Shown in pieces: positions 1 through 21,393 of a stretch of DNA of 64,000 nt (positions are counted from its first letter, which is position 1; each line of letters starts with the position of its first letter). Source of the DNA: an uncultured Algibacter sp. (lineage in GTDB: Bacteria; Bacteroidota; Bacteroidia; Flavobacteriales; Flavobacteriaceae). The notes below the pieces were generated by a model that ran no database searches, was not told the origin of the DNA, and saw only the letters and a list, made by a program, of their open reading frames with translations. The DNA is taken from positions 1 to 64,000 of the forward strand of contig CANMZT010000010.1 in the NCBI GenBank assembly GCA_947502405.1, read 5' to 3'. A program made the translations under genes and the position numbers.

Positions 1-2790
1 AATGTAGCACAGATCACAGCAAGCGATCAGTTTGATCCAGATAGTGATCCAACTACAGACAATACGGTAGATGAAGACGGCGATGGCAATGGCGATGATG
101 ATGACGAAGATGAACTTACCATAGCTCCAGCGCAGGCAGATTTATCATTAACTAAAATAGTTGTTGATGGAGATACAACGCCACTTGTAGGGTCAGAAAT
201 CACTTTTGAAATTAGAGTATTTAATGACGGGCCACAAGATGCCACAGGAGTAGAAGTGATGGATTTATTACCATCAGGATATGACTTTGTGTTATATAGT
301 TCAACATCGGGAGTATATGATGAGACTACGGGGTTATGGACATTAGGAACAGTGCTTTCAGGAGAATCAGAAACATTATTAATAGACGTTTTAGTGAATG
401 CAACAGGAGATTATTTCAATGTTGCAGAAGTAATTTCTTCAGATGTATTTGATCTAGATTCAGTTCCAAATAATGATGATGGTGATCAAAGTGAGGATGA
501 TGAAGACAATGCTGTAGTGACACCTATAGAATCTATCTCAGACCTTTCATTAGTAAAAACTGTAGTAGATAATGATATAACGCCATTAGTAGGTTCAGAA
601 ATTACATTTCAAATTACAGTAACTAATGATGGGCCTCAAGATGCCACAGGTGTATCTGTTACAGATGCATTACCATCTGGATACGACTTTGTATTATTCA
701 GTTCTACATCGGGCGTATATGATGAATCAACAGGGGTATGGAATATAGGAGGTATAGCTTCTGGAGAATCAGAAACATTGTTAATAGATGTATTAGTTAA
801 CGCTTCAGGCGACTACTTGAATATAGCAGAAGTGACATCATCTAATACCACAGATTCAGATTCTACACCAAATAATGATGATGGCGACCAGAGTGAGGAT
901 GATGAAGATAGCGCAAGTGTTACACCAGTAATTTCGGTGGCAGATTTATCATTAACAAAAGATGTTGTGGATGGTGATACAAACCCATTAGTAGGTACAG
1001 AAATCACATTTATAATAACGGTAACTAATGATGGTCCGCAAGATGCAACAGGTGTAGAAGTTACAGATCTATTACCATCAGGTTTTGATTATATCTTATT
1101 TAGTTCTACATCTGGAACTTATGATGAGACAACAGGAATTTGGAATGTTGGTAACATTGTTAACGGTGCAACAGAAACTTTATTGATAGATGCTTTAGTT
1201 AACGGATCTGGTGATTATTTAAACATTGCACAAATCTCAAATTCAGATGTTGCAGATAATGATTCTACACCAAATAACGATGATGGTGACCAGAGTGAAG
1301 ATGATGAGGATAATGTGTTAGTTACTCCAGTTGATGCTATGGCCGATTTATCTCTTGCAAAAACAGTTGTAGATAATGAGATTATGCCAAATGTAGGTGA
1401 TGAAATTACATTCCAAATTACAGTAAGTAATGCAGGTCCAGACGCTGCTACAGGTGTAGAGGTTATAGACTTGCTACCACAGGGATTCGACTTTGTTCGT
1501 TTTAGTGCAACATCAGGAATATATGATGAAGTAACTGGTTTATGGACGGTAGGCACCGTTCCTAACGGAAGCTCACAAAGTTTATTTATTGATGTAATTA
1601 TTAATGAGCCAACAGGAACAGCAGGCGAGTACTTAAATGTTTCAGAGATTATAGCAAGTGATGTTATAGACCCTAACAGTACACCAAATAATGATGACGG
1701 AGACCAAAGTGAGGACGATGAAGATAGTATTTTGGTAATGACTGAAACAGCAGATTTAAGTTTATCAAAATCTGTAAGCAACATGAATGCTAATGTAGGC
1801 GACATAGTAACATTTACACTTCAAATAGATAACGCAGGAGTTGATGCGGCTACTGGAGTTTCTTTAGAAGATATCTTACCAATTGGCTACAGCAACATTA
1901 GCAATATTAGTAACGGTGGAGAACTAATTGGAAACATCATTACTTGGTCAGGATTGAATGTGCCTTTAACAGGGCTTACAGTTACCTATGATGCTACTGT
2001 AAACATGCCAACATTACAGGCGGGTGAGTATTTAAACATTGCCCAAATTACTGGAAGCGATCAGTTCGATCCTAATAGTGAACCAGATAATGATGATGGC
2101 GATCAAAGTGAAGATGATGAAGATAGTGCATTTATTAATACCCCAATTGCTGATATAGCAGTAACCAAAACTGTAGATAATACAAACCCATCAATAGGAG
2201 AAACTATTGTGTTTACAATAGTAGCAAATAATCTTGGAGGTATAGACGCAACATCGGTTGAGATTCTTGATGCATTACCTAGCGGATATGAGTTTGTATC
2301 CTTTAATGCTACTGCAGGAAGTTATAGTGAGCAAACTGGATTGTGGGTAATACCTCGTGTTACAGCAGGTAGCTCTGAAACTTTAGAAATTACTGTTGAG
2401 GTGGTAGATGTTAATGATTATATAAATACAGCATCGCTAGAATTCTTAGATCAAATAGATGGTAACGAAAACAACGATACTGATCAGGCTACAATAGAGC
2501 CACAATGTTTACATATTTACAACGAGTTCTCGCCTAACGGAAATGGTAAAAATGAGTTTTTCGTAATTGATTGTATTAACAATTACCCAAATAATGAATT
2601 GCAAATTTATAACAGATGGGGTAATGTAGTTTACATTAAAGAGGGTTACGATAACACGTTTGATGGTATATCAAACGGAAGAGCGGTTGTGAACAAAAAC
2701 AAAAAATTACCAGTAGGGACATACTATTACATTCTTGACCTCGGAGATGGATCTGAACCAAGAGCAGGATGGCTTTACATAGTAAGATAA
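1..2790 (+). CDS. DUF11-repeat surface adhesin, type B T9SS sorting domain (5' partial)
   Basis: The reading frame is already open at base 1 with no stop, so the gene begins upstream; the ATG at 256 is internal. About 930 residues are visible. They form six complete DUF11-type beta-sandwich repeats of about 135 residues. Each opens with a D-L-S-L-x-K motif and closes with an acidic linker (PNNDDGDQSEDDED) that may bind calcium. The last ~95 residues (from about base 2509) match the gliding-motility C-terminal domain (CHU_C), the type B signal for type IX secretion: EFSPNGNGKNEFF, then IYNRWGNVVY, ending in GWLYIVR. The product is probably exported across the outer membrane and attached at the surface as an adhesin or matrix protein. 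The adjacent PorP/SprF-like and PorE-like genes fit this, since type B cargo such as SprB depends on a SprF partner. Total length and N-terminal domains are unknown. Confidence 0.9.
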   Translation, partial: NVAQITASDQFDPDSDPTTDNTVDEDGDGNGDDDDEDELTIAPAQADLSLTKIVVDGDTTPLVGSEITFEIRVFNDGPQDATGVEVMDLLPSGYDFVLYSSTSGVYDETTGLWTLGTVLSGESETLLIDVLVNATGDYFNVAEVISSDVFDLDSVPNNDDGDQSEDDEDNAVVTPIESISDLSLVKTVVDNDITPLVGSEITFQITVTNDGPQDATGVSVTDALPSGYDFVLFSSTSGVYDESTGVWNIGGIASGESETLLIDVLVNASGDYLNIAEVTSSNTTDSDSTPNNDDGDQSEDDEDSASVTPVISVADLSLTKDVVDGDTNPLVGTEITFIITVTNDGPQDATGVEVTDLLPSGFDYILFSSTSGTYDETTGIWNVGNIVNGATETLLIDALVNGSGDYLNIAQISNSDVADNDSTPNNDDGDQSEDDEDNVLVTPVDAMADLSLAKTVVDNEIMPNVGDEITFQITVSNAGPDAATGVEVIDLLPQGFDFVRFSATSGIYDEVTGLWTVGTVPNGSSQSLFIDVIINEPTGTAGEYLNVSEIIASDVIDPNSTPNNDDGDQSEDDEDSILVMTETADLSLSKSVSNMNANVGDIVTFTLQIDNAGVDAATGVSLEDILPIGYSNISNISNGGELIGNIITWSGLNVPLTGLTVTYDATVNMPTLQAGEYLNIAQITGSDQFDPNSEPDNDDGDQSEDDEDSAFINTPIADIAVTKTVDNTNPSIGETIVFTIVANNLGGIDATSVEILDALPSGYEFVSFNATAGSYSEQTGLWVIPRVTAGSSETLEITVEVVDVNDYINTASLEFLDQIDGNENNDTDQATIEPQCLHIYNEFSPNGNGKNEFFVIDCINNYPNNELQIYNRWGNVVYIKEGYDNTFDGISNGRAVVNKNKKLPVGTYYYILDLGDGSEPRAGWLYIVR
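130..2480 (+). repeat. tandem ~400-bp coding repeats (DUF11 modules)
   Basis: Six complete in-frame repeats can be followed at DNA level. The acidic linker recurs near 466, 868, 1270, 1684 and 2092, giving spacings of about 402, 402, 414 and 408 bp. The linker is nearly identical in nucleotides between copies, whereas the globular parts have diverged more. Such arrays commonly change copy number by recombination and often collapse in assembly. Confidence 0.85.
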
Positions 2791-2832
2791 ATTTAGAACA
2801 CAGTATATAGTTTAAAACATAAGAATTTAAAG

Positions 2833-3750
2833 ATGAACTTAAAATTTAAAATAGTATTTAGTCTAGCTCTAGCATTTACATGTTTTCATGTAAATGCACA
2901 GCAAGATCCGCAATATACAGACTACATGTTTAATACATTAACTGTAAATTCTGCCTATGCTGGTTCTAGAGGGCACTTAACCGCTACAGGATTGTACCGA
3001 ACGCAGTGGGTAGGTCTTGATGGTGCACCAGAAACCCAGACCTTTAGTGTGGAATCTCCAGTAGGTAAAAATGTAGGTTTAGGTGTTGTATTGGTAAACG
3101 ATAGATTAGGACCATCAGATGAATTTTTCTTAGATGCTAACTTTTCATATACCATTAATCTAAATTACGATAGCAAGCTGTCTTTTGGGATTAAGGGTGG
3201 ATTAAGGTTGTTGAATGTTGATTGGTCTAGAGGATCATTTCAGGAACAAGAAAATGTATTTCAACAAAATATAGATAATCGATTTTTGCCTACTATAGGT
3301 GCTGGTGTTTACTGGCATAATGATAATAGCTATTTAGGATTATCTGTACCTAATTTTTTAACAAGCGAGCACTACGATGGCGTGCAAAATGCAGTTGCTG
3401 CAGAACGTTTACATTACTTTTTAATTGGTGGTAAAGTGTTTGACTTAAGCCCAAGAATAAAATTAAAACCAGCCTTTTTAGGAAAGTTTGTAGTTGGTGC
3501 ACCAATAATAGTGGATTTATCAGCAAATGTAATGTTTGATGATGTATTTAGGCTAGGTTTAGCATACCGTTGGGACGATTCCGTAAGTGGTCTATTAGGA
3601 TTTCAATTAGGTCCAAAATTAATGATAGGCTATGCTTATGATGCTACTACTACACGTTTAAACAATTTTAACTCTGGAACACATGAAATTATGTTACGTT
3701 TTGAATTAAGATCTAGAGAAAAACAATTAAAATCACCACGATTCTTCTAA
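2833..3750 (+). CDS. PorP/SprF family type IX secretion-associated membrane protein
   Basis: The 305-residue product has a signal peptide (MNLKFKIVFSLALAFTCFHVNA, cut near AQQDPQ) followed by the typical PorP/SprF opening QDPQYTDYMFNTLTVNSAYAG. Alternating amphipathic strands to the C-terminus fit an outer-membrane beta-barrel. SprF is needed for secretion of the adhesin SprB, and type B cargo genes often have a dedicated PorP/SprF neighbour. Here the gene starts 42 bp after a CHU_C adhesin and is followed 12 bp later by a PorE-like gene, so all three are probably co-transcribed. Family membership is clear. That it serves the adjacent adhesin specifically is inferred from position. Confidence 0.9.
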   Translation: MNLKFKIVFSLALAFTCFHVNAQQDPQYTDYMFNTLTVNSAYAGSRGHLTATGLYRTQWVGLDGAPETQTFSVESPVGKNVGLGVVLVNDRLGPSDEFFLDANFSYTINLNYDSKLSFGIKGGLRLLNVDWSRGSFQEQENVFQQNIDNRFLPTIGAGVYWHNDNSYLGLSVPNFLTSEHYDGVQNAVAAERLHYFLIGGKVFDLSPRIKLKPAFLGKFVVGAPIIVDLSANVMFDDVFRLGLAYRWDDSVSGLLGFQLGPKLMIGYAYDATTTRLNNFNSGTHEIMLRFELRSREKQLKSPRFF

Positions 3751-3762
3751 AATATAAGCTAC

Positions 3763-5784
3763 ATGAAAAACATAATTACACTTTTATTTTTAGCTACTGC
3801 AAGCATCACAATGGCACAAAACTCTAACGAGAAAGCCGATAAGTTGTTTGATAGAATGTGGTACAAAGAAGCATCAGCATTATACGAATTAGAGCTGAAA
3901 AAGGCAGAAAGAAAGAAAAAGGGGTTTAATAATGCTACTGATTCTACTTATGTAAATCTTTTAAAACGAGCTGGCGATTCTTATTATTTTAATACCGATA
4001 TGGAAAATGCCCATAGATGGTATGATAAATTGGTGTCTGATTTTTACTCTGATGTAGATACCGAATATATTTTTAGATACGCACACAGTTTGCAGGGTAT
4101 TGGAAAATACAGAGAGGCTAAGCGCTGGATGAAAGAGTTCTCTAAAAGAACTAAAAATAAAGACGATCGTTCACCTAACTTCAGTCAAGAAAAAATAACC
4201 GTTGAAGATATTTTAGATATAGAACCTAGGTTTGTACTTAAAAATATATCAACAAACACCAAGTATTCAGATTTTGGGCCAATGTACTATAAAGACAAGT
4301 TGGTGTATTCATCAGCCGTAGATAGTTCAACATTTCATACTAGAATTTACCACTGGAACGAGCAACCTTTTTTAAATATGTATTTAGGAGCGTTGAATGC
4401 CATAGAATCTGACGTAAAACTAATTGATGAGTTTTCAGATAAATTGAACACACGCTATCATGAGGCTACTTTAGCATTTTCACCAGACGAAACTAAAGTA
4501 TATTTTACCAGAAATAATTACGATGGCGATTTAGGACGTGATGGCAAAGGCACTAATCATTTAAAATTATACAGTGCAGAGTTACGAAAAAATGAAGATA
4601 GTTTGCCTCAATGGAAAAATGTAAAAGAGCTTCCCTTTAATAGTGAAGATTACTCAGTTGGTCATCCAACAGTGAGTAAGGACGGAAAGCTTCTATATTT
4701 TGTTTCTGATATGCCGGGATCCATTGGTGCTACAGACATTTTTGTTGTAGATATTTTGGAAGAAAACGAAACTACCAAACTAGACAGCACTTTTACAGGT
4801 TATTCCAGACCAAGAAATTTAGGGGATAAGGTGAATACTGCTGGTAGAGAAATGTTTCCTTATATCACTAACAATGCCTTGTATTTTGCTTCTGATGGTC
4901 ACTTGGGTTTAGGAGGTCTTGATGTGTATGAAAGTAGGGTGATTGAAGAACAATTTCAAAATCCTGTAAACCTTGGGGCACCCCTTAATAGCAAGCTAGA
5001 TGATTTTGGGTTTATAGTGAATGAAGCTAAAGATAGAGGGTTTGTATGTTCTAATAGGTTAGAAGGAAAGGGCGATGATGATATTTATTCCTTTGTGCGC
5101 TTGCCTGCACCAGAAGGTCCACCTTGTGAACAAGCCATTAGAGGTTATGTGTCGAATGCCATAACTGGCGAACGTATTTCAAATGTAAATATGAATTTAT
5201 TTTCTGATACGGGTAAGTTGTTAGAAACTATAAAAACCAATATTGCTGGCGCATATACATTTAGTACAGTTTTAGATTGTGCAACACCATATAAAGTTAC
5301 AGCAGAAAAAACAGGTTATGAGCTTAAGGAGAAACCAACACTTACATTAAATGAAAATGGAGAGACTGTTGTTGCCCTTGGCTTAGAAACCTTAAACGAA
5401 CTTATAGTTGAAGAACGGGGAGTTTTAAAAATAAAGATTGGTATTATTTATTTTGATTTGGATAAATCGTTTATACGCAATGATGCCGCTGTAGAACTTA
5501 ATAAAATTGTATTGTTAATGACGCAGTATCCGCAAATGGTAATCAAGATTGAATCGCATACCGATTCCAGAAATTCTCAATCTTATAACTTAAGCTTGTC
5601 AGATAGAAGAGCAAAATCTACAAGAGAATATATAATTAGCCAAGGGATAGATGGTAAAAGAATTGAGAGTGCCAATGGTTTTGGGGAATCTCAGCTAATT
5701 AATGATTGTATCGATGGAGTAAGCTGTTCTGAAACGGAACATCAGCTTAACAGACGATCAGAATTTATAATTACTAAAATGTAG
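3763..5784 (+). CDS. PorE-like OmpA family protein (TPR, beta-propeller, CRD, OmpA domain)
   Basis: The 673-residue product has a signal peptide (MKNIITLLFLATASITMAQ). Next come TPR-like helices to about residue 120 and a PD40/WD40-like propeller at about 160-450, with repeats such as LAFSPDETKVYFTRN and PTVSKDGKLLYFVSD. A carboxypeptidase-regulatory-like fold lies at about 455-530 (IRGYVSNAITGERISNVNM), and a C-terminal OmpA peptidoglycan-binding domain at about 560-673 contains ESHTDSR and LSLSDRRAKSTREYI. This is the domain order of PorE, which links the T9SS outer-membrane complex to peptidoglycan. Because it follows a PorP/SprF gene and an adhesin, it may be an anchor dedicated to this adhesin rather than the housekeeping PorE. 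It ends in a TAG at 5782-5784, before a hairpin. Confidence 0.88.
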   Translation: MKNIITLLFLATASITMAQNSNEKADKLFDRMWYKEASALYELELKKAERKKKGFNNATDSTYVNLLKRAGDSYYFNTDMENAHRWYDKLVSDFYSDVDTEYIFRYAHSLQGIGKYREAKRWMKEFSKRTKNKDDRSPNFSQEKITVEDILDIEPRFVLKNISTNTKYSDFGPMYYKDKLVYSSAVDSSTFHTRIYHWNEQPFLNMYLGALNAIESDVKLIDEFSDKLNTRYHEATLAFSPDETKVYFTRNNYDGDLGRDGKGTNHLKLYSAELRKNEDSLPQWKNVKELPFNSEDYSVGHPTVSKDGKLLYFVSDMPGSIGATDIFVVDILEENETTKLDSTFTGYSRPRNLGDKVNTAGREMFPYITNNALYFASDGHLGLGGLDVYESRVIEEQFQNPVNLGAPLNSKLDDFGFIVNEAKDRGFVCSNRLEGKGDDDIYSFVRLPAPEGPPCEQAIRGYVSNAITGERISNVNMNLFSDTGKLLETIKTNIAGAYTFSTVLDCATPYKVTAEKTGYELKEKPTLTLNENGETVVALGLETLNELIVEERGVLKIKIGIIYFDLDKSFIRNDAAVELNKIVLLMTQYPQMVIKIESHTDSRNSQSYNLSLSDRRAKSTREYIISQGIDGKRIESANGFGESQLINDCIDGVSCSETEHQLNRRSEFIITKM

Positions 5785-5869
5785 ATTTATAAAGCTTAAG
5801 GGAATCTACTCTTATGTATAGTCTAAGGTTGGTTAATAGCGATTTCTTGACAAACATTTAGTAGAGAGT

Positions 5870-5893
5870 GAAGCGAGCATTTATGCTCGCTTC
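5870..5893. terminator. bidirectional hairpin between convergent genes
   Basis: An 11-bp perfect inverted repeat (GAAGCGAGCAT / ATGCTCGCTTC) with a 2-nt spacer lies between the plus-strand OmpA gene and the minus-strand histidine kinase, abutting the kinase stop codon. The T tract is weak on both sides, so terminator strength is uncertain. Confidence 0.65.
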
Positions 5894-7411
5894 TTATTTT
5901 ACGTACTTATAGATTTTTTCTAACAGACTTTTTTTATCAAATGGTTTTGGTAGTATAGCATTTGCTCCAGCCTGTTTAAATCGTTTTAAGTCTTCTTTAA
6001 ACACTTCAGAAGATATGACTACAATTGGGGTTTTTCTATATTCTTTCGAGAGATTACGTATTGAAGTAGTTATATCCATAGCACTAAAACCTTCAATAGT
6101 GTTAGATAATAATATTAAATCTACGTTATGATTAATAATATGTGGAACAACATCATTACCATTTGTAATAATGTTTAAATAAAAGCCGCCTTCATTAGCT
6201 ATGATTTTTAATACAGATAATTGAATTAATTCAGCATTTTCAACCAACAATATACTCTGTTTAGAAGCTAAGTTACCTTTCAAATCTTCTACTAATTTAT
6301 TTTTTAAACTTTTATTATATCTCGTAAGTTTAAAACTAATATTACAAGTAAATTTACTGCCGCCATTAACCTCGCTTTCAACATTTATGTTGCCGTTCAT
6401 TTTTAAAACTAAATATCTTACAATGGATAACCCTAGTCCAATACCATTATTATTTTCGATTACAGAGGGAAATTTTTTAAATCTAACAAATATCAGTTCA
6501 TGGTTTTCTGGATGAATTCCAATGCCAGTATCGCTAACGGCTATTTGTATGTTAGCTTTATTAGCTCTTTCATAATTTAAAGAGACACTAAGATTTATAG
6601 AGCCCTTTTTTGTGAATTTAATAGCATTATCAAGTAGGTTGCCTACAATTTGTTTTAACCTGTAGGAATCTCCGTTTAAATATTCTGGCAGTTTTGGGTC
6701 TAGAATATAATTGAACTCAAGATTTTTTTTAGTAATGAGGTGTTTATAAGCTTCAATCAGTTCATTTAAAAGCTCTTCTAAACTAAATACTTTATCAACT
6801 AAAATAAGCTTACCAGATTCTATTTTTGAGAGATCTAAAACATCTTCAATTCGGTTTTTTAAATCTCTATTGGCAGATTTAATAATATTGATATAGTTTT
6901 TCTGGTCAGAGCTTAAATCACTATCAATTAATAATTCACTAAATATTATTGAAGCTGTTATTGGGTTTCTTAGTTGATGGCTAAAATTAGCTATGAAGTT
7001 ATTTTTAAAGGCTTCTTTTTCTAATAAATACTCATTTTTAAGTTCTAATACCTGACTATTTATTATGGATTCGTTTCTCGTTTGTGCAGTAAGTTGATAA
7101 TTATTGTAATGTTTGGTTAAATCTTCAATTACTATTAAATTCTCATTACTTTTTTCGGAGTATATAGTAATATCAGTAATAAAAGTATTTGTTTTGAACT
7201 CTATATGAATACATGAAAATTCAAAGCATTCATTTTTTATTATGTTTAGATTTTCAAGTATTTCAAAAAATGGATGGATATTTTGAATTTTACAATGGCG
7301 TTTAATGAAAAATAAAGTGTCATCACTCTCTATTACGTTTCCGTAATCATCAATTAAGATATATTGAAAATTATGTTTATGATATTTTTTTTTGTAATTA
7401 TCTAACATCAA
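5894..7411 (-). CDS. hybrid sensor histidine kinase with degenerate receiver
   Basis: The 505-residue protein has no predicted membrane segment. A PAS-like N-terminal region (~1-105) leads to a HisKA dimerisation domain with H145 in FSHQLRNP, then an HATPase_c domain with N box (NLLDNAIKFT), G1 (DTGIGI) and G2 (NGIGLGLSI) all intact. The C-terminal ~120 residues fold like a receiver and keep the distal Lys (ILPKPFD). However, the phospho-acceptor Asp is Ser436 (DLILLSN), and the N-terminal acidic pair is reduced to VENAE. The H box also has Gln146 where Glu is usual after the His. It is the last gene of a four-gene minus-strand cassette, 9 bp after the GTPase gene. ATP binding looks competent. 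Normal phosphorelay to its own receiver is not possible, so the receiver may act as a protein-interaction domain. Confidence 0.88.
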   Translation of the reverse strand: MMLDNYKKKYHKHNFQYILIDDYGNVIESDDTLFFIKRHCKIQNIHPFFEILENLNIIKNECFEFSCIHIEFKTNTFITDITIYSEKSNENLIVIEDLTKHYNNYQLTAQTRNESIINSQVLELKNEYLLEKEAFKNNFIANFSHQLRNPITASIIFSELLIDSDLSSDQKNYINIIKSANRDLKNRIEDVLDLSKIESGKLILVDKVFSLEELLNELIEAYKHLITKKNLEFNYILDPKLPEYLNGDSYRLKQIVGNLLDNAIKFTKKGSINLSVSLNYERANKANIQIAVSDTGIGIHPENHELIFVRFKKFPSVIENNNGIGLGLSIVRYLVLKMNGNINVESEVNGGSKFTCNISFKLTRYNKSLKNKLVEDLKGNLASKQSILLVENAELIQLSVLKIIANEGGFYLNIITNGNDVVPHIINHNVDLILLSNTIEGFSAMDITTSIRNLSKEYRKTPIVVISSEVFKEDLKRFKQAGANAILPKPFDKKSLLEKIYKYVK

Positions 7412-7420
7412 ATCTAACTC

Positions 7421-7912
7421 TTAAAATAACTCCCTAGCTAATTTAGAGAAAAGAGATTCAACTCTACTACCAGTTTTAGCACTTACAAAAAATTCGACAA
7501 GAGGTTTAAAAGTACCGGTGTGTTGTGTTAAATATGCTTTATTAACCAAATCTACTTTGTTACCAACTACTTTTACAGGAATATTTTTGTAATTTTCACT
7601 TAAGAAACTTAGTTCAGATTTAAGATTTTTAAACGTTTCGGGTCTAGATAAATCAAATACATAAATAAACCCATGAGTTCCTAAAAGATAGGAGGTTCGT
7701 GTTTTTTTAATATCGTCCTGCCCTTCCAAATCCCAAATAACGAGAGAAACAGACGTTTTATTATCACTTATTTCAATAGTTTTTTTTGAAATATGAACAC
7801 CAATTGTAACCTTATAGTCTTCAGAAAATGTATTTTCAACAAAACGTCTTATTAATGAGGTTTTGCCAACTCCAAAATGACCTATTAAAACAATTTTTTT
7901 AGATGTTATCAT
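7421..7912 (-). CDS. Ras-like small GTPase
   Basis: The 163-residue single-domain GTPase has all five G motifs: P-loop GHFGVGKTS (residues 11-19, Lys17), switch I Thr36 (YKVTIG), DLEGQ (61-65, Gln65 equivalent to Ras Gln61), NKVD (118-121) and SAK (144-146). The order and spacing are those of Rab/Ras-type proteins, not of Era or EngA. There is no C-terminal cysteine for lipidation. The start overlaps the end of the preceding gene by 14 bp, so translation is probably coupled. Bacterial Ras-like GTPases such as MglA work as switches with roadblock/longin-type partners, and the overlapping upstream gene may encode such a partner. The downstream effector may be the histidine kinase. The biological role is not known. 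Confidence 0.92.
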   Translation of the reverse strand: MITSKKIVLIGHFGVGKTSLIRRFVENTFSEDYKVTIGVHISKKTIEISDNKTSVSLVIWDLEGQDDIKKTRTSYLLGTHGFIYVFDLSRPETFKNLKSELSFLSENYKNIPVKVVGNKVDLVNKAYLTQHTGTFKPLVEFFVSAKTGSRVESLFSKLARELF

Positions 7913-8729
7913 TTTTAAAAAAAGCCTCTAATTTTGTGGTTAGTTTTGTTTTGTTATTCAAATTTTTAATTACACTTTTTTCATTTACAAATTTAAGAAT
8001 TTGATCCTCAAGTTTATCTTTATATATGATGTTATATACTCCTGAGACTACAACAGCGATATAGAATGAAGAAAAGTTTTGAAGATGTATATGGTATAAA
8101 TCGTATTCAATGTATTGCAGGTCTTGTTCTTCTTTTTTAAATGCATCTTCTACAAAACTTTTGATGGCTGTAAGCATACCGGCCACCATGTCTTCATCAG
8201 CCATTTTGGTTTTGGAATATTTCGCCAAAACTATTCCAGAACCTTTTTCAATGATGATAACCTGTTCTATTTTAGCATTAGTTTGATCTTGAATAATTAA
8301 GTCTGATTCTTCAATGCCAGAAGCTCTAGATTTTGCTTTTCTAAACAAGCGTTTAAATGAAAACGTTTTATTAATTTGATTGTTTATGTTTTCAGATAAC
8401 AATTTCATCTCATGCTGTACATAACGTTTTACCATTTGCCCAAGAATGGGGAAAAGTGCTTCTACAACTGAGTCTTTAGAATGTTTTATTTCTTCTTTTA
8501 ATGCCTCGGTAATAGAAGGACCAAGTGTGTCTGGAATTTCTTTTATAAACTGTTGTAACTTTTTATTTATTATTGGATCTACCTTGGTTGATAGATTTTT
8601 CCTTTCATTAACTGTGCTTTCAAGAATCTTTATTTTTTTTTCAATAGATGAAGCAAACTCTCGCTCATCGGTAAGCAGAATATCTTTTATAATACTTAGT
8701 TTTTCATCTTGATTCATGTAAGAAAACAA
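7899..8729 (-). CDS. core of GTPase-associated OmpA-type proteins, lacking the OmpA domain
   Basis: The 276-residue protein has a helical N-terminal region (LLTDEREFASSIEKKIKILE) and a block containing LGPSITEALKEEIKHSKDSV and VVEALFPILGQMVKRYV. An alpha/beta segment follows (~140-240), with IEQVIIIEKGSGIVLAKYS and DEDMVAGMLTAIKSFVEDAF. From memory, these motifs recur in large OmpA/MotB-domain proteins of cyanobacteria and proteobacteria that lie next to Rab-like GTPases. There they read roughly as FPvxGPairra, then RVEQVFLIHRETGLLL, then DADMVSGMLTAIQDFVRDSF. The family normally continues into a C-terminal OmpA domain, which is absent here. The alpha/beta segment could be a roadblock/longin-like GTPase partner; that is inference. 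No signal peptide or membrane helix is apparent. Confidence 0.7.
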   Translation of the reverse strand: MFSYMNQDEKLSIIKDILLTDEREFASSIEKKIKILESTVNERKNLSTKVDPIINKKLQQFIKEIPDTLGPSITEALKEEIKHSKDSVVEALFPILGQMVKRYVQHEMKLLSENINNQINKTFSFKRLFRKAKSRASGIEESDLIIQDQTNAKIEQVIIIEKGSGIVLAKYSKTKMADEDMVAGMLTAIKSFVEDAFKKEEQDLQYIEYDLYHIHLQNFSSFYIAVVVSGVYNIIYKDKLEDQILKFVNEKSVIKNLNNKTKLTTKLEAFFKNDNI

Positions 8730-8731
8730 AT

Positions 8732-9094
8732 TTATTCACTAATTCTTTCTCCTAATTTTATGAAGAGTTCACTTAATAATTTGCGATTAACTTTTTCGTT
8801 ATCAAGAGTATCCAATTTATCGTTTATTGAATTTTCTAAATCGGTAATTCTAATGTTAATATCAGTACTTAGTGAGTCAATATTTTGCAAAAGCTCCGAT
8901 TCTACACTGCTAATTAAGTTTTGTAGTTCTTCTTTTTTTGCTAAAATATCTGCTTTTATACTTTCAAATTCAGAATTGTATGCCTGAATATTTTCACCAA
9001 AAATGAGATCTTTTATAGCATCAATTTTTGATGTAGTGTCTTTGGAATTGCCGTTTATATGTTCTTTTGGGTCTTTAATCGCTTGTTCTTTCAT
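8732..9094 (-). CDS. coiled-coil protein of the GTPase cassette
   Basis: The 120-residue product is strongly charged and almost entirely helical. It begins with a polar tail, then IDAIKDLIFGENIQAYNSEF, followed by heptad-like sequence (LISSVESELLQNIDSLSTDI) typical of a coiled coil, and ends in LLSELFIKLGERISE. It is the first gene of the minus-strand cassette. Its stop lies 2 bp from the start of the next gene, so the two are translated together. A scaffold or oligomerisation role for the GTPase module is possible but inferred. I do not recognise a named family. Confidence 0.8.
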   Translation of the reverse strand: MKEQAIKDPKEHINGNSKDTTSKIDAIKDLIFGENIQAYNSEFESIKADILAKKEELQNLISSVESELLQNIDSLSTDINIRITDLENSINDKLDTLDNEKVNRKLLSELFIKLGERISE

Positions 9095-9491: not shown

Positions 9492-11282
9492 ACAACATAA
9501 GTGAGTGCTGAAAGTAAAAACGTAAAGGCATCAGCCACCGTTAAAAATGAAGTCAAGAAAAAATTGACTCAAAAAATGATTGGACTTCAAATTAAAGAAC
9601 TACCTATCAGAAGGCTTATTCCGTACCTAATTAACCAAGAAAACCCTTTAACGAGGAAGCTCTTAAGCAACTGTCTGAAAGCATCGAAGAACACGGTGTC
9701 CTGCAACCTAATACAGTCCGAAAATCTGGAAAAGATTACATCATCATCATGGGAGAGCGAAGGTATCGTGCAAGTAAGTTGGCAAAAAAGAAAACAATTC
9801 CGAGTATCGTAAGGGAATATGCAAATAATAATGTTCTGGAAATTCAAATTATCGAAAACCTACAAAGACAGGATGTTGAACCTACAGAAGAAGCCGAAGC
9901 GGTAGCATTCCTAAGCGAAAAATATGCACCAGCAGAGATTTCAAAACGGTTGGGAAGAACAGAAAACTTTGTAAGACAACGCTTAAAATTAGCAGGTTTA
10001 ATTGAAGGTTTTAAAGTCTTTGTTCGTAATGGCGAAATGACGATTTCGTTAGGTGTAGGTGTTGCACTTTTCGAGCCAGAGGAACAGCAAATGATGCTGG
10101 AGACAATGGGAGAAGAATTTAATACCCATCAAATTAATCAGATGATTAAAAACCAGACCTACGATTTGGAAAATGCACCTTTTGATGTGGTCGATGAAAA
10201 ATTGATTACTAAAGTTGGAGCTTGTACAACATGTCCATTCAACGCAGCAAATCAAGGTAATTTGTTTGGCGATGGTAAAATGGTGTGTACAAAATCAGCC
10301 TGTTATGAAACGAAGAAAAATAAGTCATTTTTGAACTTGATTGAAAAATCGAAGAAAGAAAATGTGCTGTTGATTGCTGAAATTCGAAAATATTGGGCTG
10401 ATGACGAGAATAATCAGCTCATTATATCTCAATTGGAAAAAATGGATTGAAAGTTTATCTTTTGGATGATGTTGAAATAATCGAAGATCCAATTAAACCT
10501 ACAATTGAAGCGATTAAGATAGAATACCAACATTACGACTATTCTGAAGATGAACTAAAAGCTGAACTTGAAGAAGCGGTTGAAGTTTACAAGGAAGAAT
10601 TGAAAATTTATAATTCCGCCAAAGAAAACGGATTTGTAAATGGTGTTATGTTTCATCCAAAAACGTATGTACACAAATCAATCTTTGTGAAGCTAGTAGA
10701 AGGTTCAAAAACTGAAAGTTCTACGTATTCAGAACCGTTTGCAAATCGAAAAATGGCAGAGTGTTCGCCTGAAGAACAAATCGTTAAAATCAACGAAAGA
10801 GAAACTCGTAAGAGACATATCGAGCACAATAAGGAATTTGAGGACATAGTTCAGATGATTCGTGGAACTGATTACATCGAAAAGAAGAAATCAATTTCGG
10901 TTGATGAAATGGTGGCTTTCTCATTAAGTTTATTTGAAAATAATGTGGACTACGTAGGTCGACAAAAACACTTTTCGAAATTATTGGGCAACACATCCAA
11001 GAAGACTGATGTGGAAACTGTCGAGAATTTCAAAAAGAATTTCAAAAAGGAAACCTTCTATAAGTTGATTCGGTACATTCTTACCAAGCAAGTACATTTT
11101 GGCGAAAGCAATCATGTTAATAGTCTAACGAACATTTCATTCTACAATGCGATGCAAGGGTATTATAAAACCAAAATTGCAATATTGAAAAGGAATATGT
11201 AGAAGAGAGAAACAAGCGTGAAGCACGTTTGAAAGAGCGAATAGGAAATCTTGAAAAGAAAATTCAGGAATTAAACGATTAG
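9489..11282 (+). pseudogene. ParB/Spo0J-type partition protein, decayed
   Basis: Three frames together read as one ParB-like protein of roughly 595 residues. The likely start ATG at 9489 is followed by an in-frame TAA at 9498-9500. After LQIKELPIRRLIP a one-base loss near 9624 changes frame. The new frame then has TAA at 9632-9634 just before PRKPFNEEALKQLSESIEEH, the start of the ParB nuclease-fold domain. The domain continues with MGERRYRASKLA and a helix-turn-helix (EISKRLGRTENFVRQRLKLA). A cysteine cluster follows (CTTCPFN, then VCTKSACYETK). One A appears missing in the run at 10437-10442, shifting into LKVYLLDDVEII. Another base is lost near 11180, after which EYVEERNKREARLKERI runs to TAG at 11280-11282. 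Similar proteins occur on Bacteroidota plasmids and integrative elements, including PRTRC-type loci. Five lesions in 1.8 kb amid intact neighbours mean real decay. Confidence 0.88.
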
Positions 11283-11301
11283 TTTTTGTTGTTGGAAGTA
11301 A

Positions 11302-11334
11302 GGGTCAGCATTCGTGCTGGCTCTTATTTTTTTA
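11302..11334 (+). terminator. rho-independent terminator after parB remnant
   Basis: A hairpin GTCAGCA-TTCG-TGCTGGC (one G-T pair, TTCG tetraloop) is followed by CTCTTATTTTTTTAT. It lies just after the original parB stop codon. Confidence 0.75.
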
Positions 11335-11394
11335 TATAGTTCTTCATAAAAAAGAGTAAGTAGAAAGTACTCAATCAATATCAACGCAAAGATA

Positions 11395-11543
11395 AACTCG
11401 TAAAATACACCCATCAAAAGACTACGACATAAAGCCTTCGCATCATCCAACGCTTATTTATTCCGTTTCCTTTTGAGCTGTGATTTTAACTTCCGTTTAG
11501 GTAGTGCTCAAATATTGTTTAATCAAAAAATCTTAGAATTATG
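11395..11543 (+). repeat. leader repeat copy B (upstream of 53-residue gene)
   Basis: It has the same blocks in the same order as 9381-9491: AACTCGTAAAATAC, CTTATTTATTCCG, TTTCCTTTTGAG, GATTTTAAC, TTCCGTTTAG and a final AGAATTATG. About 40 extra bases separate the first two blocks compared with copy A. A common promoter/leader for genes of the element is the simplest reading. Confidence 0.6.
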
Positions 11544-11702
11544 AAACAAGTATCTGAAAAATTTAACATGTCATTACAAGAAGCACAAGAACATTATCAA
11601 TTAAGTAGTGATAATTACGATTTTGATAGTGGAGAAAGTCATTTAGCTTATTACAGGGATAAGCACCCTGCAAATTATCAAGTACTATTAGATAGCGTTT
11701 AA
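11541..11702 (+). CDS. hypothetical 53-residue protein of the mobile element
   Basis: ATG at 11541 opens a short intact frame encoding MKQVSEKFNMSLQEAQEHYQ and ending in NYQVLLDSV. It is acidic and polar, with no signal peptide or membrane helix. It follows the shared leader repeat and lies 16 bp before a second small gene, so the two probably formed an operon. I do not recognise a characterised family. Small proteins of this kind are common cargo of Bacteroidota conjugative elements. Confidence 0.6.
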   Translation: MKQVSEKFNMSLQEAQEHYQLSSDNYDFDSGESHLAYYRDKHPANYQVLLDSV

Positions 11703-11718
11703 TTTAAAATCTCAAATC

Positions 11719-12026
11719 ATGAAAAATTTAAAAGTAGTTCAGTTCGATTTCGGTTTTGAATGTAACCCAATATTTGCAAAAGAAAAAGTAGTAAAACCAA
11801 CTAAAAAGGATAAGACTAATTTTGTATTCTATTTATGGATTGCCTTACGAGTCCAATCATTGTTTTTAAATCTGCATGGCAAAATACCATACCAAAGGAC
11901 ATTCTCAGTAGAATAAAATTATCACGAATAATTTGCTCAATGACAGGAGATAAAATGGCATCACTTACAGAGGCTTTAGCTTACATGATGCCAAGAACCT
12001 ATGAAATTAGTGACGTTCTACATTAG
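11719..12026 (+). pseudogene. small mobile-element protein, frameshifted
   Basis: ATG at 11719 encodes MKNLKVVQFDFGFECNPIFA and continues to KTNFVFYLWI near 11838. There the sensible reading moves to another frame: DCLTSPIIVFKSAWQNTIPK, then DKMASLTEALAYMMPRTYE. Each half alone is an unlikely protein, but joined they give one soluble product of about 100 residues, so one base has been gained or lost near 11835-11840. The last six codons before TAG at 12024-12026 run into the truncated integrase remnant, so the original C-terminus may be lost. Function unknown. Confidence 0.65.
12012..12023. repeat. 12-bp inverted repeat, left arm
   Basis: GACGTTCTACAT here is the exact reverse complement of ATGTAGAACGTC at 12623-12634. 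The left arm sits at the truncation point of the integrase. The right arm sits at its first frameshift. Confidence 0.5.
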
Positions 12027-12622
12027 ATAAGTTTTTTAAGTTCTCGATGGCTTTTATTTCTTTTTCTGAAAGCCCTAATTTGACAGTTTCAGGAAATTTT
12101 ATTTTGAATTTGCCAGGATCGAAAGAGTATAGTTCTTTACTAACCACCTTATCCTTAATCGCTCTATTAAAAAGTAGTCGAATCAATACCATTACATTCA
12201 TTGCAGTAGTTTCGGTAAGAGAGCAGTTGCCTTTTAGGTATATTTTAAACTTTTTAAGAAATCGTTCATCAATTTCTTGAAAAGTTAAATGTCTTACCTT
12301 ACAATATTTTTCTATACAACTAACCCAAGCTGAATCCGTAGAAAGACGATTCATTTTTTCCTCAACTTCTAAAGCTTCAAGGTGCTCATCAACAAAATCA
12401 AAAAAATGTTAGGTTTGAAGTGGGTTTATAAATCTCTTTTTTAATTTGATTCACAGATGCATCCTTATTGTTGGTTTGGAGAGCTATAAGACCTTTTCTA
12501 GCTTCTGATAGTTTTGAAGACAGAAGATTATTTAAAGATTCAGAATTTGGATGGGATTTTTTAACTTTATTATTTTTTGAATCCCAATGCTCTATATCTA
12601 TGTAATGACCTAATAAGTTAGT

Positions 12623-12634
12623 ATGTAGAACGTC
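12623..12634. repeat. 12-bp inverted repeat, right arm
   Basis: ATGTAGAACGTC is the exact reverse complement of the sequence at 12012-12023. It lies in the integrase arm-binding domain where the reading frame is broken. Confidence 0.5.
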
Positions 12635-12719
12635 GATTTTTGGTAATCCGAATCGCAAGCGGATAAAGCCCCTTAGTGTTGGGTTTTTTGCGTAAAACTA
12701 TTTTTGCACTTGCTGACAT

Positions 12720-13084: not shown

Positions 13085-13254
13085 TTTAATTCTTAATCAA
13101 CAGCTAGATTTTTTTACTAAATTGCCCTCAAAAACACACAATTGCAATAACCAAAGATTAGGTGGAGTTTGTATTTGCATTTAATTTTCTAGGATTAATA
13201 ATCTAGTTTTTATAATCTTATCTTAAACTTATAAATCAATTGATTAAAAATAAT

Positions 13255-16200
13255 ATGAAGTTTTTAAATACTTGTGTTTGTCTTTTTTTATTATGGTTTA
13301 GTGGATACTCTCAGGGTCAAATAAAAAACCTAGATTTTGTCAATATAAAAAAGGGTAAATCTAAAGTAGCTGTTACAACTATTATTCAAGACCATTATGG
13401 TTTTGTATGGTTTGGAACTGCAGGTGTTGGTTTAACTAGGTTTGATGGGATGGATTACGTCAGTTATAAACACTCATTAAAAGATTCTACTTCTATAAGC
13501 AGTAGTCTTGTTTATTGCTCGTATTTAGATAAAGAAAATAAATTGTGGTTTGGTACAGAAGAGGGGTTGAATTTGTATAACAGAGATTTAGATAGATTTT
13601 CAAGAATACCTATTTATAATGCAGATACTGGGGCGGAGGAGTTTTTTGCCATTAGGAGTATATGTAGTGATAAGAAAAATACTTTGTTTATTGGAACCTA
13701 TGGAGCTGGTTTATATAAACTAGATCTTAATACATTAAAAGTAAAAAAAGTATCAAATTCTCCAGAAATAGATAATTCTTTCATTGTCATTTTCGATTTA
13801 AAGTGTAATAGTGAAGGACGCGTATTTGCAGGTACTAATTTGGGGTTATTAGAGTATGATGAAACAACTCATGAACTAATATTTGCTAAGATAAATAATA
13901 AAGTTTCTTCTTTAAAAACACCTATACATTCGTTACTTACTGATCATAAAGATATTTGGATTGGGACTGAATCGGAGGGGTTAATATGTTTAAAATATAG
14001 AGATTCAGATTTAGTTGGATATAGAGTAGTAGATTCTAAAATAACCAATAAAAGGATTCTGGACATGGTTAAACTTGCTGATGGCACAATTCTGTGTGGG
14101 ACCGAAAATGATGGGCTTATACATGTTGATACCAACGGAAATGTTCTCAACACCTATTTATTTAACAAGGAAGAGGAAAACAGCTTGTTGTCTAATTCCA
14201 TTTGGACTTTATTTAGAGATAATGATAACCGTATTTGGTTGGGGTATTACAATAGCGGTGTGGCTATATATGATGATTTATATGATAAATTTAACCATAT
14301 AAAAAGTGTAAAAAACAATAAGAACTCGTTGTCAAATCCTTCTGTTACCGGGTTAGCTAAAGACAATCAAGACAATTTGTGGATTTGTATGGATGGAGGA
14401 GGCGTTGATTTATATAATATAAAGAAGCAAAGTTTTATCCATATTAATACAAAAGACACTAATATATATTCTGGCTTAACAAGTGATTATATTGAATGTG
14501 TGTTTGTAGACAGTAAAAACAATATTTGGTTAGGCAGTTGGAACGATGGTTTGTTTCTTCTACCAAATGGATCGAAAAGATTTATAAATTATAATACTAG
14601 AAATACAAGTGGAAATTTAGCCTCCAATACTATTTTAAGTATTACAGAAGATAATGAAGGAACCATTTGGATTGGAACATTCTATAAGGGGCTTCACTCA
14701 TTTAATCCCAAAAGTAAAACTATTAAAAGACATGATTCTACACCGTTTATAGAAAACAACTTAGTAGAGGTTGATATAAGAAAGGTTTTGGTAGATTCCA
14801 GACAAAACCTATGGATAGGAACCACTCGCGGGCTATTTAAAATAATAAAAGACGATGCGAATCATTTTTACATCGTATCATGCAAAGATGAAATGGCTCA
14901 AGAGTTTGATAATCAAATAACATCGAGTCATATTTTAACGCTTTACGAATCCTTAAACAAGGAGAAAATATGGATAGGTACAAGAGGTGCTGGTCTTTGT
15001 GTATACGATTATAATCAAGAAACTTTTTCTTGGTATAATAATCAAAAAGGTTTTGATGGAGAAAATATTACTGGAATAACAGAAAGTAATCATGGTGATT
15101 TATGGCTTAGTAGTAATTCTGGTTTATACAGGTATGAAGTAGAGACTTCTAAGTTTACAAATTTCACTTATAATGATGGGTTATTGTCAAATGATTATAA
15201 TATTAATGCAGCATTTAAAGATGAAGGAGGTATTCTGTATTTTGGGAATTACCAAGGTGTAGATTACTTTGATCCCAATAAAATTGAAACCAATACAACT
15301 TTGCCTTCAGTATATCTTACTGATTTTAAGTTATTCAATCAAAAGGTTTTTCCCAACAAAGAAAAGGGGCCTTTAAATAAAGTAATATCTGAAACTGAAG
15401 AGATAGAATTAACTCATAAACAATCTGTATTCACTATTGAGTTTACAGCCATTAATTATACAAGACCTGAAAAAAATCAATTTGCTTATTATTTAGAAGG
15501 TTTAGAAAATTCATGGAATTACGTAGGCAACACGCGAAATGCCACTTATACTAATTTGGATTATGGAACCTACACATTTAAACTAAAAGCAGCAAATAAT
15601 GATGGGGTTTGGAACGAAATACCTACGAGTATAAAGATTACAATGCTCCCGCCTTGGTGGAAAACAAATTGGGCTCTTTTTGTTTACACTATTTTGCTTT
15701 TACTTGGATTGTATTTCTTAAGAAAAATTGTTCAAGATCGTATTCAAGAAAAGCAATTAATGGCCTATGAAAGAGAAACAAGAAAACAAAAGGAAGTTTT
15801 AAATGAAAAGAAATTTCAATTTTTCACCAATATATCACATGAATTTAGAACACCACTAACATTGATTATGAATCCTCTTGAGGATATTTTACAGAATAAT
15901 AACCTAAGTTTTCCTGAAATTATAAAAACGAAACTTAAAACGGTTCATAAAAATACTGATAGGCTACATAGGCTAATTAATGAGCTTTTAGATTTTAGGA
16001 AGCTAGAGTTAGATAAAGTAAGAGTAAAAGCAAGTAGAATAAATCTAGTTCAATTTATTAAAAGCGTAGTAAGTCATTTTAAAGAAGAAGTATTAGCGAA
16101 ACACATATACTTGTCTGTTGATACTGATGCTCCTGATATTCCATTGTGGGCAGATAGTAGTATGTTAGAGAAGATTATTTTTAATCTGCTTTCTAACGCA

Positions 16201-17418
16201 ATTAAAATTACACCAGACGGTGGTGCAATCAATGTTGAAGTGAGGCTAAAAGAAGAAAAGATAGTTATGCCTTTGGTTGATGAATTTAAAGCTATTGATG
16301 TTGTTGAAGTAATTATTTCAGATTCTGGTCCAGGTATTGATGAAGAACAGATGAATAAAATATTTGAGAGATTCTATCAAGTAGAAAACTTAAACAATAC
16401 TTATTATGGAGGAACTGGCATAGGCTTAGAAGTAGTTAAAAGTTTTGTTCATCTCCACAAAGGAAATATAGAGGTTGAAAGCGAATTAGGAAAAGGCACT
16501 AGCTTTAAGATTTATTTGCCGTTAGGTAATGATCATTTTAATATAAATGAATTAGCTGTTGGTGTTGAGGAAATAAAAGAAATAGAAGATGATTTTGTAA
16601 ACGAAAATAATCTAGACAAAAGTTCAAAAGAAGAAATAACTAATCAAAAAGAGAAATCAACTGTAACTCATACATTATTGATTGTAGAAGATAATTTAGA
16701 GCTTCAAACATACTTAAAACAAGAATTGAAAAGTGAGTATGATATTTCTACAGCTACTAACGGATTTGAAGGTTTGGAAATAGCAACTAAAATTTTACCA
16801 GACGTAATAATAACGGATGTAATTATGCCCGAAATGGACGGGTTTGAGTTTTGTAAAAAAATAAAAAGTGATGTAAAAACTAGCCATATCCCCTTATTAA
16901 TGCTAACCGCTAAAGCAAGAATAGATAATAGGATGGAAGGTATAGAGTTGGGTGCAGATGCTTATATGGTGAAGCCTTTTAATTTGAGGCTTTTAAAGCT
17001 AAGACTCGCTCAACTAATTACAAGTAGAAAACTGATTTTTGATAAATATTTTAGTGTTATTAGTGAGCTCCCTGAAGATGTTAAAACAACCTCTATAGAT
17101 AAAGAGTTTATTGAAAAAGTTTTAAATTATATTAATGATAACATTAGTAATCCAAACCTAAATGTTGAAATGTTAGCGGCAAAAATGAACTTAAGCAAAA
17201 GTCAGTTTTATCGTAAAATAAAAGCTTTAACCAATCAAACTGCTAATGAATTCTTGAGAAACATAAGACTTCAAAAGGCAAAACAAATATTGGAACTTGG
17301 AAGCGCTACAGTTGGTGAAGTTTCATATAAGGTAGGTTTTTCTTCACAATCATATTTTACAAAATGTTTTAAAAATTACTATGGTGTTTTGCCTACTAGC
17401 ATAGAGGTTAACAATTAA
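13255..17418 (+). CDS. hybrid two-component system regulator (HTCS)
   Basis: The ATG at 13255 gives a signal peptide (MKFLNTCVCLFLLWFSGYSQ); a TTG five codons upstream is less likely. The product has 1387 residues. A periplasmic two-propeller sensor of Reg_prop repeats (~25-690, with many IWIGT and LWIG motifs) leads into a Y_Y_Y domain (~720-790) and one membrane helix near 800-820. The cytoplasmic part has HisKA with His862 (NISHEFRTP), HATPase_c (NLLSNAIKIT, DSGPGID, GGTGIGL), a complete receiver with Asp1188 (ITDVIMPEMDG) and a C-terminal AraC helix-turn-helix. HTCS proteins bind an oligosaccharide from the target glycan in the periplasm and activate the adjacent utilization locus, here the GH3-GH16-SusC/SusD genes downstream on the same strand. 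The ligand cannot be read from sequence. Confidence 0.95.
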   Translation: MKFLNTCVCLFLLWFSGYSQGQIKNLDFVNIKKGKSKVAVTTIIQDHYGFVWFGTAGVGLTRFDGMDYVSYKHSLKDSTSISSSLVYCSYLDKENKLWFGTEEGLNLYNRDLDRFSRIPIYNADTGAEEFFAIRSICSDKKNTLFIGTYGAGLYKLDLNTLKVKKVSNSPEIDNSFIVIFDLKCNSEGRVFAGTNLGLLEYDETTHELIFAKINNKVSSLKTPIHSLLTDHKDIWIGTESEGLICLKYRDSDLVGYRVVDSKITNKRILDMVKLADGTILCGTENDGLIHVDTNGNVLNTYLFNKEEENSLLSNSIWTLFRDNDNRIWLGYYNSGVAIYDDLYDKFNHIKSVKNNKNSLSNPSVTGLAKDNQDNLWICMDGGGVDLYNIKKQSFIHINTKDTNIYSGLTSDYIECVFVDSKNNIWLGSWNDGLFLLPNGSKRFINYNTRNTSGNLASNTILSITEDNEGTIWIGTFYKGLHSFNPKSKTIKRHDSTPFIENNLVEVDIRKVLVDSRQNLWIGTTRGLFKIIKDDANHFYIVSCKDEMAQEFDNQITSSHILTLYESLNKEKIWIGTRGAGLCVYDYNQETFSWYNNQKGFDGENITGITESNHGDLWLSSNSGLYRYEVETSKFTNFTYNDGLLSNDYNINAAFKDEGGILYFGNYQGVDYFDPNKIETNTTLPSVYLTDFKLFNQKVFPNKEKGPLNKVISETEEIELTHKQSVFTIEFTAINYTRPEKNQFAYYLEGLENSWNYVGNTRNATYTNLDYGTYTFKLKAANNDGVWNEIPTSIKITMLPPWWKTNWALFVYTILLLLGLYFLRKIVQDRIQEKQLMAYERETRKQKEVLNEKKFQFFTNISHEFRTPLTLIMNPLEDILQNNNLSFPEIIKTKLKTVHKNTDRLHRLINELLDFRKLELDKVRVKASRINLVQFIKSVVSHFKEEVLAKHIYLSVDTDAPDIPLWADSSMLEKIIFNLLSNAIKITPDGGAINVEVRLKEEKIVMPLVDEFKAIDVVEVIISDSGPGIDEEQMNKIFERFYQVENLNNTYYGGTGIGLEVVKSFVHLHKGNIEVESELGKGTSFKIYLPLGNDHFNINELAVGVEEIKEIEDDFVNENNLDKSSKEEITNQKEKSTVTHTLLIVEDNLELQTYLKQELKSEYDISTATNGFEGLEIATKILPDVIITDVIMPEMDGFEFCKKIKSDVKTSHIPLLMLTAKARIDNRMEGIELGADAYMVKPFNLRLLKLRLAQLITSRKLIFDKYFSVISELPEDVKTTSIDKEFIEKVLNYINDNISNPNLNVEMLAAKMNLSKSQFYRKIKALTNQTANEFLRNIRLQKAKQILELGSATVGEVSYKVGFSSQSYFTKCFKNYYGVLPTSIEVNN

Positions 17419-20379: not shown

Positions 20380-20381
20380 AA

Positions 20382-21293: not shown

Positions 21294-21385
21294 TATATAT
21301 GGTTAAGCCACAGTAAATTAAGGGGCTTGCGTAAAATTTACAAAACAATGCTTTAATTGTTTTAATAAAGACTTAGAGTAAAAAT

Positions 21386-21393
21386 TAAATTTG
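21386..21393 (+). promoter_or_regulatory. candidate -7 element of the first susCD operon
   Basis: TAAATTTG fits TAnnTTTG and lies 68 nt upstream of the SusC start, giving a leader of about 60 nt. The -33 position reads TTTA rather than TTTG. Confidence 0.4.

What the first reader, a model, noticed from the sequence alone, without database searches (positions are those of the whole stretch)
5894..9094. Four-gene Ras-like GTPase signalling cassette with a hybrid histidine kinase
The coiled-coil protein, the OmpA-family core protein, the Ras-like GTPase and the hybrid kinase are packed with 2 bp, a 14-bp overlap and 9 bp between them, so they form one transcription unit. The GTPase has a full set of G motifs. 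Bacterial Ras-like GTPases are known as polarity switches (MglA) with roadblock partners, but a fusion of such a module with a histidine kinase in Bacteroidota is, as far as I recall, not characterised. A system where GTPase state controls a kinase is inferred.
Basis: partly seen in the sequence, partly recalled or inferred. Interest (0 to 1): 0.75.

Follow-up and report, generated by a model that had tools for sequence, protein, structure and literature searches.

The report
Bacterial Rab-like switch with longin-fold partner
Four neighbouring genes in a flavobacterium encode a known but experimentally untested kind of signalling unit, a small Ras/Rab-like GTPase paired with a histidine kinase, and its unexplained third protein appears to carry the longin/roadblock fold that regulates Rab GTPases in our own cells.

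Summary
On the minus strand, 5894-9094 holds a helical protein, a 272-aa core protein, a Ras/Rab-type GTPase and a PAS-HisKA-HATPase-receiver kinase. All four genes are kept in order in 30 of 31 family loci examined; 78 of 80 named loci hold all four, and in the other two a GTPase-kinase pair sits elsewhere in the same assembly. Core and GTPase occur in the same 14 of 395 Bacteroidota genomes. A Nostoc plasmid has the same order. The kind is not new: it matches the four-gene neighbourhood of 'Group 1 Rup' GTPases (PMC4316618). 'OmpA-family' is wrong for the window protein; distant homologues carry TM+OmpA. What appears new: the core's unassigned C-terminal domain looks like a longin/roadblock fold (structure searches; profile comparison; sub-threshold Pfam longin hits in homologues). 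The core model is weak, so this is likely, not certain. The kinase N-terminus is a PAS fold; its receiver has Ser at the phospho-Asp site. That GTPase state controls the kinase is inferred.

The parts
8732..9094 (-). gene 1: 120-aa helical, probably coiled-coil protein
   Evidence: ORF; homologue in the same place in 30 of 31 loci, window counted; its profile also matches the Nostoc plasmid protein, E 1.2e-12. No coiled-coil predictor was run.
7899..8717 (-). gene 2: core protein, 272 aa from ATG (276 from TTG at 8729); no OmpA domain and no hydrophobic segment in the window
   Evidence: max 19-residue hydropathy 1.26 (no TM predictor was run)
8280..8717 (-). core N-terminal helical half, residues 1-146
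   Evidence: AF2 secondary structure, low confidence; alignments
7902..8273 (-). core C-terminal longin/roadblock-fold domain, residues 149-272 (strand-strand-helix-strand-strand-strand-helix-helix)
   Evidence: AF2, VIA-align vs PDB, Foldseek vs PDB, HHalign vs roadblock with controls, Pfam Fuz_longin_1 sub-threshold in two homologues only
7421..7912 (-). gene 3: 163-aa Ras/Rab-like (Rup-type) GTPase; overlaps gene 2 by 14 bp
   Evidence: best PDB sequence matches Rab35 and Rab1, E about 1e-24
7718..7720 (-). codon of Gln65, equivalent of Ras Gln61, in G3 (WDLEGQ)
   Evidence: Gln in 16 of 111 cassette GTPases, duplicates included
5894..7408 (-). gene 4: hybrid histidine kinase, 504 aa from ATG (505 from TTG at 7411); probably soluble
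   Evidence: max 19-residue hydropathy 1.59
7118..7375 (-). PAS-fold input domain of the kinase (residues 12-97 from ATG), with conserved Gln15
6812..7006 (-). HisKA (DHp) domain, His present
   Evidence: Pfam 1.3e-17; H-box His in 120 of 122
6335..6673 (-). HATPase_c catalytic domain, N and G boxes present
   Evidence: Pfam 1.1e-25; alignment
5912..6253 (-). receiver domain, probably not phosphorylatable (Ser436 in TTG numbering at the Asp site, codon 6104-6106)
   Evidence: Pfam 1.3e-12; alignment; D in 82 of 122

Best explanation
This is a soluble, flavobacterial member of the Group 1 Rup signalling systems: a Rab-like GTPase switch with a dedicated regulator and a dedicated kinase. Proposed mechanism: the helical protein and the longin/roadblock-fold core form a platform that binds the GTPase and sets its nucleotide state, as roadblock/longin proteins (MglB, Mon1-Ccz1, TRAPP) do for their GTPases. 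The loaded GTPase then engages the PAS-fold N-terminus of the kinase and changes its autophosphorylation, and the phosphate leaves to a separate acceptor because the kinase's own receiver lacks its Asp. Shown here: gene order, co-occurrence, intact G motifs, intact kinase boxes, a confidently predicted PAS-fold input, receiver degeneration. Supported but not certain: the longin/roadblock fold of the core. Inferred: every physical contact, whether the core acts as GEF, GAP or scaffold, the separate phosphate acceptor, and the direction GTPase to kinase.
Against: The core model is weak (mean pLDDT 55; residues 171-210, which hold the helix, 40-48), and only 6 Foldseek matches reach E 0.001. The chain identity of the axonemal and GATOR/Rag rows is not stated there. 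The window core has no longin or roadblock Pfam match. The homologue matches are below cut-off (19.5 and 13.1 vs 26.1 bits), unrelated families scored better on other members (UPF0058 1.6e-4, Apolipoprotein 6.6e-4), and Fuz_longin_1 also rings below cut-off in 3 of 14 control genomes. HHalign gave 25.5 for an unrelated GTPase control over 15 columns, and a first comparison with an unclean roadblock set gave Prob 19. A short helix before the first strand (137-146) leaves roadblock topology open. No complex could be modelled. Co-occurrence partly reflects shared descent, and the two searches used different E limits (1e-5 and 1e-30). One extra kinase without an extra GTPase in 12 of 80 loci shows the pairing is not strictly one to one.
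Confidence: 0.6

Rival explanations
1. Reverse flow, as posited for actinobacterial conservons: the PAS-kinase senses a signal and acts on the GTPase or its regulator, and the GTPase is the output.
For: No separate response regulator was seen in the cassette, and the receiver phospho-Asp is lost in the window clade (S, A, T), in another lineage (K), in L062 (S) and in the second kinases (N); it is D in 82 of 122. Wuichet and Sogaard-Andersen posit the GTPase as output for conservons. PAS domains are classical sensors (general knowledge).
Against: In other members the fourth gene is a clear output protein, such as a sigma-54 activator (L165, L167), which puts the variable gene at the output end; PMC4316618 likewise calls it an output module.
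Confidence: 0.22
2. The conserved Gln of the kinase PAS domain is the catalytic Gln given in trans to a GTPase that lacks its own (the speculation of the 2014 paper), so the kinase is the GAP.
For: Gln in 121 of 122 flavobacterial kinases; most GTPases lack G3 Gln (95 of 111).
Against: The window GTPase and 15 others have their own G3 Gln and still keep the PAS Gln. By eye, the aligned residue is Glu in the fourth-gene proteins of L165-L167 and in the Nostoc kinase although their GTPases lack G3 Gln.
Confidence: 0.1
3. Ordinary hybrid kinase next to an unrelated GTPase gene, held together by operon inertia without physical coupling.
For: No contact has been tested; the flavobacterial block often keeps flanking genes too (fbp upstream in 64 of 80 loci).
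Against: The order is also found in a cyanobacterial plasmid, the genes stay matched in number and presence when split or duplicated, and the window cassette holds its four genes away from fbp.
Confidence: 0.08

Closest known systems
Group 1 Rup GTPase systems (Wuichet and Sogaard-Andersen 2014, PMC4316618; passages plus sections 17 and 19 read)
   Same: Four conserved genes: coiled-coil protein, unassigned-domain protein, Ras-superfamily GTPase, output protein (kinase or c-di-GMP enzyme) with an N-terminal region holding a conserved Gln; Bacteroidetes members included.
   Different: The window core lacks TM and OmpA (the paper says 'often' present); its GTPase has G3 Gln, which the paper says the group lacks; the receiver phospho-Asp is lost. 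The paper leaves the core domain unassigned; here it looks longin/roadblock-like. Sigma-54 activators appear as a further output type (the word 'sigma' is not in the paper's main text).
Actinobacterial conservons / AGPS (CvnA-D; PMC13343842, abstract and outline seen)
   Same: Four-gene operon with histidine kinase and small Ras-like GTPase plus a protein of a GTPase-regulator fold.
   Different: Conservons use an MglB-type roadblock protein and a further protein with a domain of unknown function. Here no Pfam family reaches its cut-off on the core or gene 1.
MglA-MglB (Myxococcus)
   Different: G3 Asp is kept here (111 of 111), whereas MglA is recalled to have Thr there (the listing of PMC3000849 says Thr78 replaces a highly conserved residue); no Robl_LC7 match in the window genome.
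Longin-domain Rab regulators (Mon1-Ccz1, Fuzzy-Inturned, TRAPP) and Asgard longins
   Same: Rab-like GTPase with a longin-fold partner; match by fold and, in two distant homologues, by sub-threshold Pfam Fuz_longin_1.
   Different: One longin-type domain, attached to a long helical part, in a bacterial operon with a kinase; dimerisation and GEF or GAP activity untested.

Membership tests
Group 1 Rup four-gene system | Ras-superfamily small GTPase with G1-G5, G3 Asp present | tested here: met
   Pfam Ras 1e-33; Asp in 111 of 111
Group 1 Rup four-gene system | Neighbourhood of coiled-coil gene, unassigned-domain gene, GTPase, output module | tested here: met
   same order with OmpA-bearing core in Nostoc. 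Coil character of gene 1 is by eye.
Group 1 Rup four-gene system | Output module with N-terminal region holding a conserved Gln | tested here: met
   Gln in the window and in 121 of 122 kinases; Glu by eye in L165-L167 and Nostoc
Group 1 Rup four-gene system | Not coupled to a Pfam-recognisable MglB | tested here: met
   No Robl_LC7 match in the window genome
Group 1 Rup four-gene system | Reported trait (the group was set by tree, taxonomy and neighbourhood): no Gln in G3 | tested here: not met
   Window has Gln65; 95 of 111 cassette GTPases lack it
Group 1 Rup four-gene system | Place in the Group 1 clade of the published tree | not tested
   The published sequence set was not at hand; only cassette GTPases were put in a tree
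Longin/roadblock fold (longin topology) | Two strands, helix, three strands, two C-terminal helices, no N-terminal helix | tested here: inconclusive
   Order of elements and structural matches over 149-272 fit, but the model is weak there (171-210 at 40-48) and a short helix precedes the first strand
Longin domain | Match to a longin Pfam model above its cut-off | tested here: not met
   Best 19.5 bits vs 26.1, in homologue L164; none in the window protein
MglB roadblock (Robl_LC7) | Match to PF03259 | tested here: not met
   but HHalign to Bacteroidota roadblocks scores 37.1
Actinobacterial conservon | MglB-type CvnB by Pfam | tested here: not met
Actinobacterial conservon | Histidine kinase and small GTPase in one operon | tested here: met
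   (co-transcription inferred from spacing)
OmpA family | C-terminal OmpA domain | tested here: not met
   No OmpA match in the window core; matched in 9 of 10 other cores scanned, one of them (L173) just under cut-off

The most novel reading that the evidence does not exclude
Bacterial Group 1 Rup cassettes pair a Rab-like GTPase with a longin-type regulator in one operon, so the Rab-longin partnership known from eukaryotic membrane traffic (and suggested in Asgard archaea) also exists in bacteria, coupled to two-component signalling, and could be as old as, or a source of, the eukaryotic pairing.
Probability: 0.4. Interest if true: 0.8.

Novelty: new member of a known kind. Interest (0 to 1): 0.52.

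Why it matters
[quoted passage not shown] If the core is a longin-type regulator, a candidate for the missing regulator is named and can be tested with four small, apparently soluble proteins; named strains of Algibacter, Tamlana, Olleya and Aquimarina carry the cassette. [quoted passage not shown] here the pairing is given by the operon. A caution: the longin/roadblock superfamily as such is already listed as present in bacteria, mainly through roadblocks such as MglB (PMC4917890 Table 1, passages; PMC10933270). The new part would be the longin-type partner of a Rab-like bacterial GTPase; my searches for bacterial or prokaryotic longins listed no paper on that.

Tried and rejected
Pfam, NCBIfam and PDB sequence searches of the core gave nothing usable. 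Profile comparison with a first, unclean roadblock set gave only Prob 19; the set was rebuilt. The PAS domain was compared with roadblock and with the core: no relation. Pfam on 31 PAS-domain members matched no PAS model. PF03259 over 14 cassette genomes: 10 weak matches, none at a core. Plasmid search: one record only. Considered and rejected: OmpA-family protein; MglAB; conservon member; GTPase-kinase fusion. The G3 Gln gain and the receiver Asp loss fall in one group of the GTPase tree (17 rows, support 93/95: Asp lost in 17, Gln in 14; Gln in 0 of the 90 other rows), so they count as about one event and prove no link. The PF19036 genome scan was made after the hits in G361 and G462 were known; its new information is only that no other place in the 14 genomes matched at E up to 10, after the tool's own first look. 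Paired co-evolution was not attempted because the paired sequences were too few and too alike.

Rows dropped or double: G079's fragment was not fetched; L068 (a fragment, with stops in the match) is the one miss. Several loci are the same contigs as (for example L069/L039, L070/L040), so tallies include duplicates; four were removed for the tree, where my motif pattern also left G3 unread in 3 rows. 446 relatives were found, of which only the best 80 were kept and examined. The fbp-to-gene-1 gap was measured in 27 of the 64 loci with fbp.

Full report
WHAT IS THERE. The minus strand of 5894-9094 holds four genes in the order 120-aa helical protein, core protein, GTPase, kinase. The reported spacings are right for TTG starts; ATG starts give 14 bp, a 14-bp overlap and 12 bp. 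The GTPase matches Pfam Ras at 1e-33 and, among solved structures, Rab35 and Rab1 best. The kinase has HisKA, HATPase_c and Response_reg. The core has no Pfam or NCBIfam match above cut-off and no PDB sequence match. All four proteins look soluble: the highest 19-residue hydropathy is 1.59 (no TM predictor was run). The core occurs once in the genome.

CONSERVATION. The core was found in 32 of 149 genomes of the family, and not in the one other same-genus genome listed. Of 31 loci examined (window plus 30), 30 hold all four genes in order; the miss is a contig fragment. A second scan found 446 relatives and kept 80 named loci; 78 hold all four. In the other two, both metagenome assemblies, gene 1 and core remain behind the fructose-bisphosphatase gene, while a GTPase-kinase pair lies elsewhere in the same assembly. 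In a phylum sample, core (E up to 1e-5) and GTPase (E up to 1e-30) are in the same 14 of 395 genomes, including one with two of each and three of one genus where they are on different contigs. A Nostoc plasmid has the same order with an OmpA-bearing core. With the first start codon of each frame, core and GTPase overlap by 8 to 20 bp in 70 of 78 named loci.

NOT A NEW KIND. Wuichet and Sogaard-Andersen (PMC4316618; passages, sections 17 and 19) describe Group 1 Rup GTPases in neighbourhoods with a coiled-coil protein, an unassigned-domain protein often followed by TM and OmpA, and an output protein (c-di-GMP enzyme or histidine kinase) whose N-terminus has an invariant Gln. None of 71 small Rup sequences was coupled to MglB, and none had been characterised by experiment then. 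My searches of the held library listed no later experimental study; most subscription papers are not held.

MODULARITY. Where the unit is split or its halves face apart, the break lies between core and GTPase (L124, L130, L168, L170 and the genus of L169, L171, L174). Three loci carry an extra GTPase followed by a stand-alone PAS-type protein; a fourth, L057, has the stand-alone protein with one GTPase. Twelve of 80 loci carry a second kinase with the same N-terminus and no extra GTPase. The fourth gene can be a sigma-54 activator instead (L165, L167). This fits a two-part design: a regulator (gene 1 + core) and a switch-output pair (GTPase + PAS protein).

VERDICT. Observation confirmed; kind known since 2014; the longin/roadblock reading of its orphan domain is the new and testable point. 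The superfamily itself is known in bacteria through roadblocks (PMC4917890 passages), so the novelty is the longin-type partner of a Rab-like GTPase. The mechanism is inferred from anatomy and family knowledge, not shown.

Noticed in passing
L069-L148 (80 named loci): In 64 of 80 loci a fructose-1,6-bisphosphatase-like gene lies upstream on the same strand (FBPase confirmed by Pfam in one; gap 6-219 bp in the 27 measured), and in 61 a TerB-like gene follows on the other strand. The window cassette is not in this place; it sits beside porP/sprF and an OmpA-PD40 gene.
   Followed up: partly
window 7718-7720 and 6104-6106: G3 Gln present and receiver Asp replaced by Ser; in the tree group that holds the window 14 and 17 of 17 rows show these.
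   Followed up: yes
L050, L055, L056: Second GTPase plus a stand-alone protein of 198-200 aa resembling the kinase PAS domain, between core and kinase.
   Followed up: partly
L062 kinase, 5438-6940: Kinase G1 box degraded (HHQG for DTGxG) and G2 region partly missing: a likely pseudokinase.
   Followed up: no
L165, L166, L167 and L224 cores: Helical N-terminal half is extended by repeats of an 'ALxP' type segment (by eye), so repeat number varies between families.
   Followed up: no
window 9501-12658: ParB-like gene and two separate pieces of a tyrosine-type integrase (Arm-DNA-bind_5, Phage_int_SAM_5) beside the cassette: probably an old integrated element.
   Followed up: partly
window 13240-32657: Large hybrid two-component regulator (by eye) followed by glycoside hydrolase genes of families 3, 16 and 10 and PKD proteins: a likely polysaccharide utilisation locus.
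   Followed up: no
window 256-5784: DUF11-repeat protein with type IX secretion signal (CHU_C), PorP/SprF and an OmpA-PD40 protein in a row.
   Followed up: no
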